21,401 nucleotides of DNA from a virus: positions 1-21,401 of IMG/VR virus record IMGVR_UViG_3300006926_000034. One strand, 5' to 3'. The position numbers and the translations under genes are program-made. Below, piece after piece: positions 6,216 to 21,196 of this stretch (the stretch's first letter is position 1; each line of letters starts with the position of its first letter). The notes under the pieces were generated by a model, which was not told the DNA's origin, made no database searches, and worked only from the letters and a program-made list of their open reading frames with translations.

Positions 6216-6467
6216 ATGAAAATAACAGAAAGACGTTTGAGACAAATCATTAGAAGTGTTATAAAAGAAAACGAAAACGATCCTTATCTAGATCCAAATA
6301 GTCGTAAGCTCGAGCCAGAAGATGTTTTCCCGCCTATTGATGATGATGATAGATACCTACAAAATGACGAAGAAGATATACGCTATGATGAAGATGGCAA
6401 TCCGTATAACGCAGCTGAAGAAGTATACCGCGCTGATATGTGGAACGAACAATTCCTAGACTCTTAA
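6216..6467 (+). CDS. Acidic small protein with a basic amphipathic N-terminal helix
   Basis: An 83-residue protein of two very different halves. Residues 1-18 (MKITERRLRQIIRSVIKE) form a strongly basic amphipathic helix, a leader type I recall on many otherwise unrelated proteins of marine phages. Residues 19-83 are disordered-looking and very acidic, with DDDD and EDEED-type clusters. A similar start (MRKLLKEHFKELLKEE) is on the 727-residue protein at 19013. The leader may be a targeting or packaging tag, comparable in idea to T4 capsid-targeting sequences; this is inference. AAAGAGGT provides the ribosome site, the promoter at 6159-6187 drives it, and the terminator at 6501-6525 follows, so it may be a single-gene transcript. 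Confidence 0.75.
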   Translation: MKITERRLRQIIRSVIKENENDPYLDPNSRKLEPEDVFPPIDDDDRYLQNDEEDIRYDEDGNPYNAAEEVYRADMWNEQFLDS

Positions 6468-17710: not shown

Positions 17711-17714
17711 ATAA

Positions 17715-17797
17715 TGGTAGAGGCAGGATTTGAACCTGCGTACTCTTAAGAGAACGGGTTTACAGCCCGTCGCCTTTAACCACTCGGCCACTCTACC
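17715..17797 (-). tRNA. tRNA-Tyr (GUA anticodon)
   Basis: Minus strand, 83 nt. Acceptor arm GGTAGAG/CTCTACC with discriminator A and no encoded CCA. The anticodon stem ACGGG/CCCGT encloses loop CTGTAAA, giving anticodon GTA (plus 17761-17763). A long variable arm (TCTCTTAAGAGTA) makes it class II, as bacterial tRNA-Tyr should be. The T arm CAGG-TTCAAAT-CCTG is normal. Tyrosine codons are frequent in this window. Confidence 0.93.
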
Positions 17798-17808
17798 AAG
17801 ATATTATC

Positions 17809-18038: not shown

Positions 18039-18086
18039 AATAAACTCCTTTCTATGTCTGTGTCTGTAATTGTTAAATTACGGGAA

Positions 18087-18171
18087 AGCTGGCGAGGGGA
18101 CTCGAACCCCTGATTGAGAATTAACTCTCCGGATTATAAATCCGGTGCAATAGCCACTATTCGACACCAGC
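18087..18171 (-). tRNA. Class II tRNA with UAU anticodon (unusual)
   Basis: Minus strand, 85 nt. Acceptor GCTGGTG/CGCCAGC (one G-U pair), discriminator U, no encoded CCA. The anticodon stem CCGGA/TCCGG encloses loop TTTATAA, so the anticodon is TAT (plus 18136-18138), reading AUA. A 17-base variable region with a GAG/CTC stem makes it class II, which is normal for Leu, Ser and Tyr but not Ile. The T arm AGGGG-TTCGAGT-CCCCT is standard; the D arm pairs poorly in the standard form. The amino acid cannot be assigned with confidence. Confidence 0.8.
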
Positions 18172-18193
18172 TTAGTGTGTATCTATATTATAT

Positions 18194-18475: not shown

Positions 18476-19012
18476 ATGAGGATTAAACCTAACAGAATAC
18501 CTTGGGAAAATGCATACAGTTTATATCAGCTAGAGTCGAAAGATATTATTTTTGTTCTCGAACAAAATGGCATTCAAGTTAAAAACATTTCACCTGCTGG
18601 ATCTTTAAGAAGAGGAAGAAAAACAATAGGTGATCTAGATATTGTTATTGAAGTAGACAACCCACTTCTTGCCGGCAAAACGCTAGAAGACACAATGAAT
18701 TACCAGTTTTTTGCTAAAGGATCTTTTTATAAAGGACAAATACTTGATACTGGAATTGATTTGTTTGTTGCTGGGCATCACAATTATTATTCTATGCTTT
18801 TCTTCTTGACAGGTTGTGAAGATTGGAACTTAAGAATTATGAAATTCTTAAGAAATAATTCTGATATACGATATACGCCTTTTAGGTTTATTAATATAAA
18901 TACTAAAGAAGTCTATGACTTTAAGTCAGAGGAAGATATATTTAAGCTTATAAATCATAGTTATATATTACCAAAAGATAGAATACCACAAAGTATAAAG
19001 TTCGGAGAATAA
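18476..19012 (+). CDS. Minimal family X DNA polymerase-like nucleotidyltransferase
   Basis: A 178-residue protein with the palm and thumb signatures of family X polymerases: GSLRRG (42-47) with the metal-binding pair Asp53/Asp55 in GDLDIVIE, third aspartate Asp95 in GIDLFV, FLTGCEDWNLRIM (110-122) corresponding to the YFTGSxxFNxxMR element, and SEEDIFKLINHSYILPKDR (151-169) like the C-terminal part of Pol beta. The 8-kDa lyase and the HhH fingers of Pol beta are missing. The size recalls ASFV Pol X (174 residues). Gap filling in repair is the likely role, with the ligase at 4497. Terminal transferase activity is an alternative. Weak AAGG precedes the ATG. Confidence 0.82.
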   Translation: MRIKPNRIPWENAYSLYQLESKDIIFVLEQNGIQVKNISPAGSLRRGRKTIGDLDIVIEVDNPLLAGKTLEDTMNYQFFAKGSFYKGQILDTGIDLFVAGHHNYYSMLFFLTGCEDWNLRIMKFLRNNSDIRYTPFRFININTKEVYDFKSEEDIFKLINHSYILPKDRIPQSIKFGE

Positions 19013-21196
19013 ATGAGAAAACTACTGAAAGAACATTTCAAAGAATTGCTCAAAGAAGAAATTGATTTTAGTTCAAAAACAGCAACTGTATACCATTTAA
19101 CAGGTTTTAAAACTGCTGACTATGATCCTGTATATGCAGAAAAAATGAAGAAAACAAATAAAGATTTAAGAGGCCAAATTAAATCAAAATATGCAGGCAA
19201 GGAAAAAACAAGAGCACAAAGTATTTTATCTAAAGCAGAATATAAAACTGCTGCAAAAGAACTTAAGCAATTTAAAACTCCGCAAGGTCAAGCATATTAT
19301 ATAGGAAAACAAATTGAAAAAGGTGCTTGGGACTTAGGCAGTAATTACGTACCTGGTCACGGTAAGATGTATGCTAAAGGTCTTTACACATGTTATAAAT
19401 TAAACCCGACAATTGCAAGAACATACGGTAGCGTTATTTTAAGATTTGAAGCCGATATATCCTCAATGCTAATTTTTAACGCAGGAATAGCAAAGAGTAT
19501 ATACGGAAAAAACTTCAGATTAGAAGATCAGTTTCTAGAAATATGCAAAAAAATGAACGTTGATATTCGTGGCTTCTGGAATCAGGAAGCTTCTTTCGAC
19601 TTTTCAGCTGATGCTCAAGACGCTATAAGTGAATTTATTGAGATGTTAACATCAATATCAAATAGACCAGAGTTTTTAAATAGTAGTTATGACGCAGAAC
19701 TTAGAACTGCTCCATTTGCGTTGCAAGCCATAGAACAATATAGCAGACTATTTAAAAGAGGAAGAGGTTCTATACTAAGAAATGTTATAAACGGAGTAAT
19801 TTTTTGGGGAAGGGGAGATGGTCCTGTTTGTATTGTTTATAATCCGGAAATAACTTTACGTCACAAACTTACAGGTGCCGGATATTTTGACAAAAAAGGG
19901 GAACCTATAATTGAGGATGTAATTGAAAGATTAATAGGTAGATCAGGAACAAGTCTTGCAGATACTTTTGAATTTGCTCAAGAAATAGATGAAGAAGCAC
20001 AAGAAATTGAGAAAGCTCGAGCAGAAAACTTCAAGCAACAACTTGCAAATTTTTCGCAAGAAGAAGATTCAACAGACGATTTTTTAAATAACTTACCTTC
20101 CAAGTTAAATACAATATTATCGCCTATAACAAATCTTTATAAAGATGCATGTGATGATCTTATTATGTCAAGAGTAAAAGACACACAACCTGATTTTGAT
20201 AATTACTGTCAGAATGTAGCTGAAGGTTATAGATATGTACAATTTATCTGTTCAATTTTATCTGAACCATTCCTACAATTTGTTGATATTTTTGGACCAG
20301 GACTTGATATAGTTAGCAAAGATGAGTTTGAAAAATACTGCTATATATTTAAACAGTATTCTTCAAATCTCCTTTTTAATGATTATTCATTAGCTCCAAA
20401 GTTAGCAGACTTTGAGCTTAATGGTTTAAAATGTGCAGCACAAAACGAAGAAGAATTTGCTAAACTCGTAGAACAACATCTTAAACCTTTGACAGATAGA
20501 TTTAATGAAATGCTTAAAGAAGGTCTTGCAAGTGAATTTGTAAATGAAATTTCTCAAGAAGCAATTGGGTCTGGTGAAATCGGTGTATTCAATAACTCCA
20601 TTACTAAATTTGAAATAGGCGAAGTTAGTTTAAATACTACAAATGATGCTCAAACTCTCGAATCTTCTCTTGAAGGCAGTGGAACAATAATGCAAAAAGC
20701 AGAGCAAGAATTGCTCGACCTATTTAATGATGAAAGAGTTAAGACTCCTGAAGGGCAATCAGCTTTAGAAAGCATGCTTCAGTATAACAAAACTATAAAT
20801 ACCGATGGTACACTTGATTTTGGTGAGATTGTTAAAAGCTTTGGTTACTACTCTGACTATTGTCACGCAGGAGGTGATATATTTTATACTCTTTGTGAAC
20901 AAATTAGGTCATTAGACTATGCCGGTTTAGGTTCTTATAAGATAGATAGAGATAAATTTAATCCTGAGTTTATATTGCAGAGGATGTATGGTCAAAAAGA
21001 AGAGTGGAAAGTAAGAGACGCAGCTGGTTTATCCTTGTCAATGTTTAAAGATGGTAGAAAAGCGTATAACGATACTACTTTAGTTACAACTGAACTTGTC
21101 AAACAAAGAGTTATACAAGACAAATCAGGCAATCTTGAATGGGTTGTTGAAACAGTATTTGATTTGCCTAGACATAGAGAAAAATTAATTATTTAA
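19013..21196 (+). CDS. 727-aa protein with possible ADP-ribosyltransferase-like domain and packaging-type N-terminus
   Basis: Starts immediately after the PolX-like stop, with GGAG before the ATG. Residues 1-16 (MRKLLKEHFKELLKEE) are a basic amphipathic helix similar in kind to the one at 6216. VYHLTG (26-31, His28), then GHGKMYAKGLYTCYK (115-129, Tyr125) and YGSVILRFEADIS (138-150) look like the histidine and tyrosine strands of PARP-type ADP-ribosyltransferases; GPVCIVYNPEI (270-280) resembles the last catalytic strand, but with Val272 where PARP1 has glutamate. The region 340-727 is mostly helical with no recognised domain. I recall similar long proteins in marine phages. Function is inferred from shape only; it could be a structural virion protein. 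Confidence 0.6.
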   Translation: MRKLLKEHFKELLKEEIDFSSKTATVYHLTGFKTADYDPVYAEKMKKTNKDLRGQIKSKYAGKEKTRAQSILSKAEYKTAAKELKQFKTPQGQAYYIGKQIEKGAWDLGSNYVPGHGKMYAKGLYTCYKLNPTIARTYGSVILRFEADISSMLIFNAGIAKSIYGKNFRLEDQFLEICKKMNVDIRGFWNQEASFDFSADAQDAISEFIEMLTSISNRPEFLNSSYDAELRTAPFALQAIEQYSRLFKRGRGSILRNVINGVIFWGRGDGPVCIVYNPEITLRHKLTGAGYFDKKGEPIIEDVIERLIGRSGTSLADTFEFAQEIDEEAQEIEKARAENFKQQLANFSQEEDSTDDFLNNLPSKLNTILSPITNLYKDACDDLIMSRVKDTQPDFDNYCQNVAEGYRYVQFICSILSEPFLQFVDIFGPGLDIVSKDEFEKYCYIFKQYSSNLLFNDYSLAPKLADFELNGLKCAAQNEEEFAKLVEQHLKPLTDRFNEMLKEGLASEFVNEISQEAIGSGEIGVFNNSITKFEIGEVSLNTTNDAQTLESSLEGSGTIMQKAEQELLDLFNDERVKTPEGQSALESMLQYNKTINTDGTLDFGEIVKSFGYYSDYCHAGGDIFYTLCEQIRSLDYAGLGSYKIDRDKFNPEFILQRMYGQKEEWKVRDAAGLSLSMFKDGRKAYNDTTLVTTELVKQRVIQDKSGNLEWVVETVFDLPRHREKLII

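What the first reader, a model, noticed from the sequence alone, without database searches (positions are those of the whole stretch)
19013..21196. Candidate phage-encoded ADP-ribosyltransferase-like effector with a packaging-type leader
The N-terminal half carries VYHLTG, then GKMYAKGLYTCYK, then a GPVCIVYNPEI strand, the order of the H-Y-(E) triad strands of PARP-type transferases; the glutamate position appears to be Val272, as in mono-transferase or inactive variants. It also has a basic amphipathic leader. T4 co-packages its Alt transferase in the head, so a virion-delivered effector is an attractive hypothesis. The long helical C-terminus (about 390 residues) has no known match I can see.
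Basis: inference. Interest (0 to 1): 0.7.

Follow-up and report, generated by a model that had tools for sequence, protein, structure and literature searches.

The report
Phage PARP-like protein with packaging tag
A marine phage gene encodes a protein that looks like a PARP-type ADP-ribosyltransferase carrying a short N-terminal tag of the kind phages use to load proteins into the virus head; relatives in other large phages form arsenals of such tagged enzymes, probably injected with the DNA to modify host proteins.

Summary
It has no significant match in Pfam, NCBIfam, PHROGs, PDB sequences or 50,697 named phages. Chained searches found its family in three distant groups of uncultured phage contigs. 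In all three a leader is followed at once by a core with invariant H-x-T, G-[LF]-Y-T, Y-G and D-G positions. A 257-kb phage has six copies reading VYHGT...YGKGLYT. An AlphaFold model of that core (pLDDT 64, pTM 0.67) finds PARP10 and tankyrases first in the PDB and a phage PolyVal ADP-ribosyltransferase first among viral models (E=1.8e-6). The PARP Glu position is Val (272 here) or Cys throughout, giving the H-Y-hydrophobic triad of mono-ADP-ribosylating PARPs. The leader class changes with the phage while the core stays. The 257-kb phage encodes T4-type gp21 protease and gp23 capsid, and ten more tagged proteins with R-S-ExE ART motifs. Best reading: a virion-packaged, Alt-like mono-ADP-ribosyltransferase effector. 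Shown: motifs, family, a relative's fold (moderate confidence), modular leader. Inferred: packaging, cleavage, catalysis, target.

The parts
19013..21196 (+). 727-aa protein: leader + ART-like core + helical C-terminal region
   Evidence: ORF; relatives at 65-100% identity in five contigs
19013..19060 (+). N-terminal amphipathic leader MRKLLKEHFKELLKEE; candidate capsid-targeting propeptide with L-x-E cleavage candidates after E7 and E15
   Evidence: Sequence; L/I-x-E is the T4 gp21 site (PMC9026906); leader followed directly by the core in three clades
19076..19888 (+). ART-like core, residues 22-292: H28/T30, G123-L-Y125-T, Y138-G139, D269-G270, V272 at the PARP Glu position
   Evidence: Alignments A8, A10; hhalign to the G010 family 97.8% E=9.8e-13 and to the freshwater family 98.3% E=2.1e-14; fold of the relative
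19106..19351 (+). Region of residues 32-113 between the His motif and the Gly-Leu-Tyr motif, enlarged only in the marine branch (most of it is an insertion relative to the other clades)
   Evidence: Alignment A10
19970..21193 (+). Helical C-terminal region, residues 320-727, no known relative outside the family; sits where other branches carry about 30-aa helical repeats or LRRs
   Evidence: No hit in Pfam, NCBIfam, PHROGs or PDB; helices in the low-confidence model
18476..19012 (+). Upstream neighbour: 178-aa minimal DNA polymerase X-like protein (palm + thumb), stop TAA immediately followed by the ATG of the ART-like gene
   Evidence: PDB hits to 174-aa pol X, best E=2e-4; Pfam palm/thumb below cut-off; TAAATG junction; pair present in all five marine relatives
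6216..6467 (+). 83-aa acidic protein with a leader of the same class as the 257-kb phage (MKITERRLRQIIRSVIKENEN)

Best explanation
This is a phage effector. Its short N-terminal amphipathic leader works like the T4 capsid-targeting sequence: it brings the protein into the prohead and is removed by a gp21-type protease after an L-x-E site. The mature protein enters the host with the DNA. Its core is a PARP-type ADP-ribosyltransferase with an H-Y-V triad. It transfers single ADP-ribose units from NAD+ to a host protein, the acceptor supplying the missing acid as in PARP10. The variable C-terminal region chooses the target. Shown: motifs, family, ART fold of a relative (moderate confidence), modular phage-specific leader in the relatives, gp21 and gp23 in one relative. 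Inferred: packaging and cleavage of this protein, catalysis, target choice by the C-terminus.
For: Three distant phage groups share leader + core; the marine profile matches the other two by hhalign at E=2.1e-14 and 9.8e-13. Model of the relative's core: PDB hits 1-4 are PARP10 (best E=9.7e-3, prob 0.94), most of the rest tankyrases and other PARPs; BFVD top hit PolyVal ADP-ribosyltransferase, E=1.8e-6, prob 1.00. The Glu position is Val or Cys in every member that reaches it; mono-ADP-ribosylating PARPs carry H-Y-hydrophobic and use substrate-assisted catalysis (PMC9189837). Leader class follows the phage: MxFxxWL type in 24 of 195 proteins of G006 versus 4 of 778 internal Met; LRxLIRxxLLxE type in 18 of 310 proteins of G010 versus 0 of 1,196 internal Met; each class absent or nearly absent from the other phage. 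G010 encodes a gp21-type protease (E=2.9e-15) and gp23 capsid (E=1.6e-63), and its gp23 precursor holds a QILKE/ANS site. In G010 the same leader and LRR tail are fused to R-S-ExE ART-motif cores. T4 Alt is the packaged precedent.
Against: No usable structure of the window protein itself. Foldseek TM-scores are low (about 0.3-0.4) and no PDB hit is below E=0.001. The window leader scores only weakly against a matrix built from G010 leaders (3.8% of internal 30-mers score as high). The window and its 39.5-kb copy show no gp23 or gp21; gp21 was not found in the incomplete freshwater contigs either. The Glu is missing, so an inactive pseudo-enzyme is possible.
Confidence: 0.66

Rival explanations
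1. Catalytically dead ART-fold protein: the fold is kept for binding NAD+, ADP-ribose or a nucleic acid, or as a scaffold, with no transfer. It could, for example, blunt an NAD+-based host defence by sequestering a signal.
For: The Glu position is Val or Cys throughout; a large insertion sits between the His and Tyr motifs in the marine branch.
Against: His, Tyr and the surrounding Gly are invariant across three very distant clades, unexpected if catalysis were lost; active mono-PARPs have the same H-Y-hydrophobic triad, while the inactive PARP9 and PARP13 lack the His.
Confidence: 0.18
2. ART-type effector made after infection in the host (like T4 ModA or ModB), not packaged; the N-terminal helix is just part of the fold or a partner-binding helix.
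For: The gene lies outside any recognised head-gene cluster and abuts a pol X-like gene; the window leader matches the G010 leader matrix only weakly.
Against: Leader class swaps with the phage while the core is conserved, and the same tag sits on many unrelated proteins of the same phages.
Confidence: 0.12
3. Structural head or ejection protein whose ART-like domain has been recruited for an architectural role.
For: A cyanophage A4 pre-ejectosome chain appears among the Foldseek hits (E=0.058); long helical C-terminus.
Against: Multi-copy, diverging clusters with swapped C-terminal repeats and interleaved R-S-ExE ARTs look like effectors, not one-copy structural parts.
Confidence: 0.04

Closest known systems
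T4 Alt (virion-packaged mono-ADP-ribosyltransferase)
   Same: Works like it: phage ART with an N-terminal propeptide, packaged in the head and injected (predicted here)
   Different: Alt is R-S-E class (own knowledge); this core is H-Y-hydrophobic and PARP-like. The ten R-S-ExE cousins in G010 are closer to Alt by motif
PARP10 and other mono-ADP-ribosylating PARPs (ARTD family)
   Same: Predicted fold (top PDB hits) and H-Y-hydrophobic triad
   Different: No detectable sequence similarity by HMM; large insertion between the His and Tyr motifs in the marine branch; different partner domains
ART-PolyVal / phage polyvalent-protein ARTs (PF18760)
   Same: Phage ARTs predicted to be injected; top viral structure hit
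   Different: PF18760 finds nothing in five records of the family even at E=10 (it rings only weakly in two controls); these are separate tagged proteins rather than large polyvalent chains
T4 internal proteins IPI-IPIII and their capsid-targeting sequence
   Same: Short phage-specific N-terminal tag, shared by otherwise unrelated proteins, ending in L/I-x-E
   Different: The leader here is longer and of a different sequence class; targeting not tested

Membership tests
ADP-ribosyltransferase superfamily, PARP-like branch | ART fold (split beta-sheet core) | tested here: met
   Met on a homologous core only: AF2 pLDDT 64, pTM 0.67; Foldseek top hits PARP10, tankyrases, PolyVal ART. The window protein's own model was unusable
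ADP-ribosyltransferase superfamily, PARP-like branch | Catalytic His and Tyr motifs in order | tested here: met
   H28-x-T30 and G123-[LF]-Y125-T kept in 15 sequences of three clades
ADP-ribosyltransferase superfamily, PARP-like branch | Third-position Glu (needed for poly-ADP-ribosylation) | tested here: not met
   Val272 here, Val in G010, Cys in the freshwater branch; compatible with mono-ADP-ribosylating members, not with poly-ADP-ribose synthesis
ADP-ribosyltransferase superfamily, PARP-like branch | Detectable sequence match to a known ART family | tested here: not met
   No hit in Pfam, NCBIfam, PHROGs or PDB by sequence or profile
ADP-ribosyltransferase superfamily, PARP-like branch | NAD+-dependent transferase activity | not testable with these tools
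   Needs biochemistry
T4-type capsid-targeted internal proteins | N-terminal leader ending in L/I-x-E, shared with unrelated proteins of the same phage | tested here: inconclusive
   Met clearly in G010 and G006; the window protein has L-x-E sites and one other window protein carries a G010-class leader, but the window protein's leader match is weak
T4-type capsid-targeted internal proteins | gp21-type prohead protease in the same phage | tested here: inconclusive
   Found in G010; the window contig and its 39.5-kb copy are fragments without recognised head genes
T4-type capsid-targeted internal proteins | Presence in virions with leader removed | not testable with these tools
   Needs virion mass spectrometry
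DNA polymerase X (upstream gene) | Palm and thumb with the catalytic aspartates | tested here: met
   GDLDIVI and GIDLF motifs; alignment to 174-178-aa viral pol X over residues 33-170, best E=2e-4

The most novel reading that the evidence does not exclude
Large uncultured phages carry multigene arsenals of head-packaged ADP-ribosyltransferase effectors built from interchangeable parts: a phage-specific packaging tag, one of two ART cores (a new PARP10-like H-Y-hydrophobic family or an R-S-ExE family), and a swappable recognition tail (LRRs, helical repeats or unique helices). The window protein is the marine branch. One phage would deliver about 16 different modifying enzymes at once.
Probability: 0.5. 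Interest if true: 0.8.

Novelty: new variant of a known kind. Interest (0 to 1): 0.62.

Why it matters
Head-packaged ARTs are known from T4 Alt, and a survey predicted that they are common in myoviruses (PMC9503650). This adds a PARP10-like family that sequence libraries do not see, with a consistent H-Y-hydrophobic triad. It also shows an architecture of tag + catalytic core + exchangeable tail expanded to about 16 genes in one phage. The phage-specific leader gives a direct way to list candidate injected effectors in uncultured phages, and the LRR or helical tails suggest that each copy has its own host target.

Tried and rejected
Pfam, NCBIfam, PHROGs and PDB sequence/profile searches of the window protein: nothing significant. 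tblastn against 50,697 phages: no match. Weak hits of the relatives to Cellulophaga phi19:3, Streptomyces Sitrop and Bacillus PS1 were read and rejected, as those proteins lack the motif sets. Two genome-contig scans gave no relative in 84,980 prokaryote species, so a host-toxin or prophage origin is not supported. Full-length AF2 of the window protein with seven rows failed (pLDDT 33) and was not interpreted. A leader-pattern scan of viral contigs returned only the near-identical contig. A first PF03420 search rang nowhere, controls included, and was set aside; the family did ring in G010. The freshwater EPTQ-type neighbours (A7) showed no profile similarity to the core, so they are not counted as members. 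The PDB 'Cake' hits of A10 are a 16-residue coincidence.

Full report
Observation. The window is a 21.4-kb virus record. A copy that differs at one residue lies in a 39.5-kb contig, and relatives at 65-76% identity lie in four other contigs (L003, L005, L045, L047). Directly upstream, with stop and start abutting (TAAATG), is a 178-aa minimal DNA polymerase X (PDB hits to the 174-178-aa viral pol X, best E=2e-4). The pair is kept in all five marine relatives.

Finding the family. Direct searches gave nothing named: Pfam, NCBIfam, PHROGs, PDB sequences and 50,697 phage genomes. Alignment-based scans of viral contigs reached two distant groups. The first ('freshwater' is my label, not a record field) holds contigs of 39-165 kb (L006-L011; 23-24% identity, E about 1e-9), with four copies per phage in three contigs. 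The second is a 257-kb contig (G010; L066-L068) with six copies. The two ends of G010 carry overlapping, slightly different copies of one such gene, so it may be close to a full circle (inference). Profile comparison of the marine set with these two groups gave 98.3% (E=2.1e-14) and 97.8% (E=9.8e-13). No relative was found in 84,980 prokaryote species genomes at the sensitivity used.

Core. Over 15 sequences the invariant positions are H28-x-T30, G115-x-G117, Y120, G123-[LF]-Y125-T126, Y138-G139, F155 and, in the rows that reach that far, D269-G270 and a later Tyr (window numbering). In G010 the same places read VVYHGT, YGKGLYT and VVYDP. The G010 core (216 residues, 15-row alignment) gave an AlphaFold2 model with pLDDT 64 and pTM 0.67; the leader, loops around 46-73 and the end are poor. 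Foldseek against the PDB put four PARP10 chains first (E=9.7e-3 to 1.4e-2, probability up to 0.94), followed mostly by tankyrases and other PARPs. Against viral models the first hit is a PolyVal ADP-ribosyltransferase (E=1.8e-6, probability 1.00), with further ART-annotated proteins below. TM-scores are low (about 0.3-0.4), so the fold call rests on the consistency of the list and on the motifs, not on one score. The window protein's own full-length model failed.

Catalytic triad. Aligning the last core strand with the PARP strand that begins with the catalytic Glu (from my knowledge of PARP sequences) puts Val272 at the Glu place. It is Val in G010 and Cys in the freshwater group. PARPs with H-Y-hydrophobic are mono-ADP-ribosylating, and PARP10 is described as using a glutamate of its substrate (PMC9189837). 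The invariant Asp three residues upstream (D269) is a further candidate, untested.

Leader. In all three groups the leader runs straight into the core, but its sequence type differs by phage. G006 carries the M-x-F-x-x-W-L class on 24 of 195 proteins (against 4 of 778 internal methionines); G010 carries the L-R-x-L-I-R-x-x-L-L-x-E class on 18 of 310 (against 0 of 1,196); each class is absent or nearly absent from the other phage (the patterns were written after seeing the leaders). The same core thus wears the tag of whichever phage it lives in, which is how a capsid-targeting sequence behaves. T4 gp21 cuts after L/I-x-E, and ten leader residues suffice for packaging of T4 IPIII (PMC9026906). 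G010 encodes a gp21-type protease (E=2.9e-15) with an intein-like insert and a gp23-type capsid protein (E=1.6e-63) whose precursor holds QILKE/ANS. In the window the leader has LKE at residues 5-7 and 13-15. A second window protein (6216-6467, MKITERRLRQIIRSVIKENEN) carries the G010-class tag, and L005 has another candidate (MILREYIENVLKEN). The window leader itself fits the G010 matrix only weakly, and no head genes were recognised on its contigs, so packaging of this protein is inference.

Company. In G010 the six H-Y proteins are interleaved with proteins that share the tag and the LRR tail but have a YRG...SW[TS]...E-x-E-[VI] core, the R-S-ExE pattern of arginine-type ARTs. Ten such genes were found, five of them with LRRs. 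The class is assigned by motif only; Pfam gave at best SidE_mART at E=0.15. The LRR tails match solved LRR proteins (E=1.7e-26). The freshwater copies carry about 30-residue helical repeats instead, and the marine branch a unique helical region. This swapping of cores and tails behind a common tag is what one expects of injected effectors with different targets (inference).

Known context. T4 Alt is a packaged, injected ART. A 2022 survey argues that ARTs are often packaged in myoviruses and notes phage G with at least ten ARTs (PMC9503650). The present family is not recognised by the library models tested and differs from Alt in class, so I rate it a new variant of a known kind.

Verdict. What remains open is whether the protein is in the virion, whether it is cut, whether it is active, and on what.

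Noticed in passing
window 18476-19012: 178-aa minimal DNA polymerase X (palm + thumb, no 8-kDa domain), similar in size to the smallest known viral pol X; abuts the ART-like gene in all marine relatives, no PHROG match.
   Followed up: partly
L066 2452-5893, 7256-8263; L067 3081-4088; G010 227.9-233.9 kb: Ten tagged genes with R-S-ExE ART motifs in one 257-kb phage, not recognised by Pfam or PHROGs (best SidE_mART E=0.15).
   Followed up: partly
L011 7051-8499, 11862-13256: Tagged proteins with GIYxYP...GTGTIHPxExTQxVVF and the same helical repeats as the freshwater family; a relative lies in a 735-kb uncultured phage record (E=8e-11). Possibly another ART-like core, but no profile similarity to the core studied here.
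   Followed up: partly
L089, G010 about 88.4-90.1 kb: The gp21-like prohead protease of G010 appears to be interrupted by an intein-like insert (GECVPPGTEILTLSGWKKIENI).
   Followed up: no
L067 start and L068 end (the two ends of contig G010): The contig ends carry overlapping, slightly different copies of one LRR-bearing ART-like gene, suggesting a circle or an assembly collapse within a repeat cluster.
   Followed up: no
window 6216-6467: 83-aa acidic protein with a G010-class packaging-type leader.
   Followed up: partly
window 17714-17798 and 18086-18172: tRNA-Tyr and tRNA-Ile (tat anticodon) genes on the minus strand.
   Followed up: no
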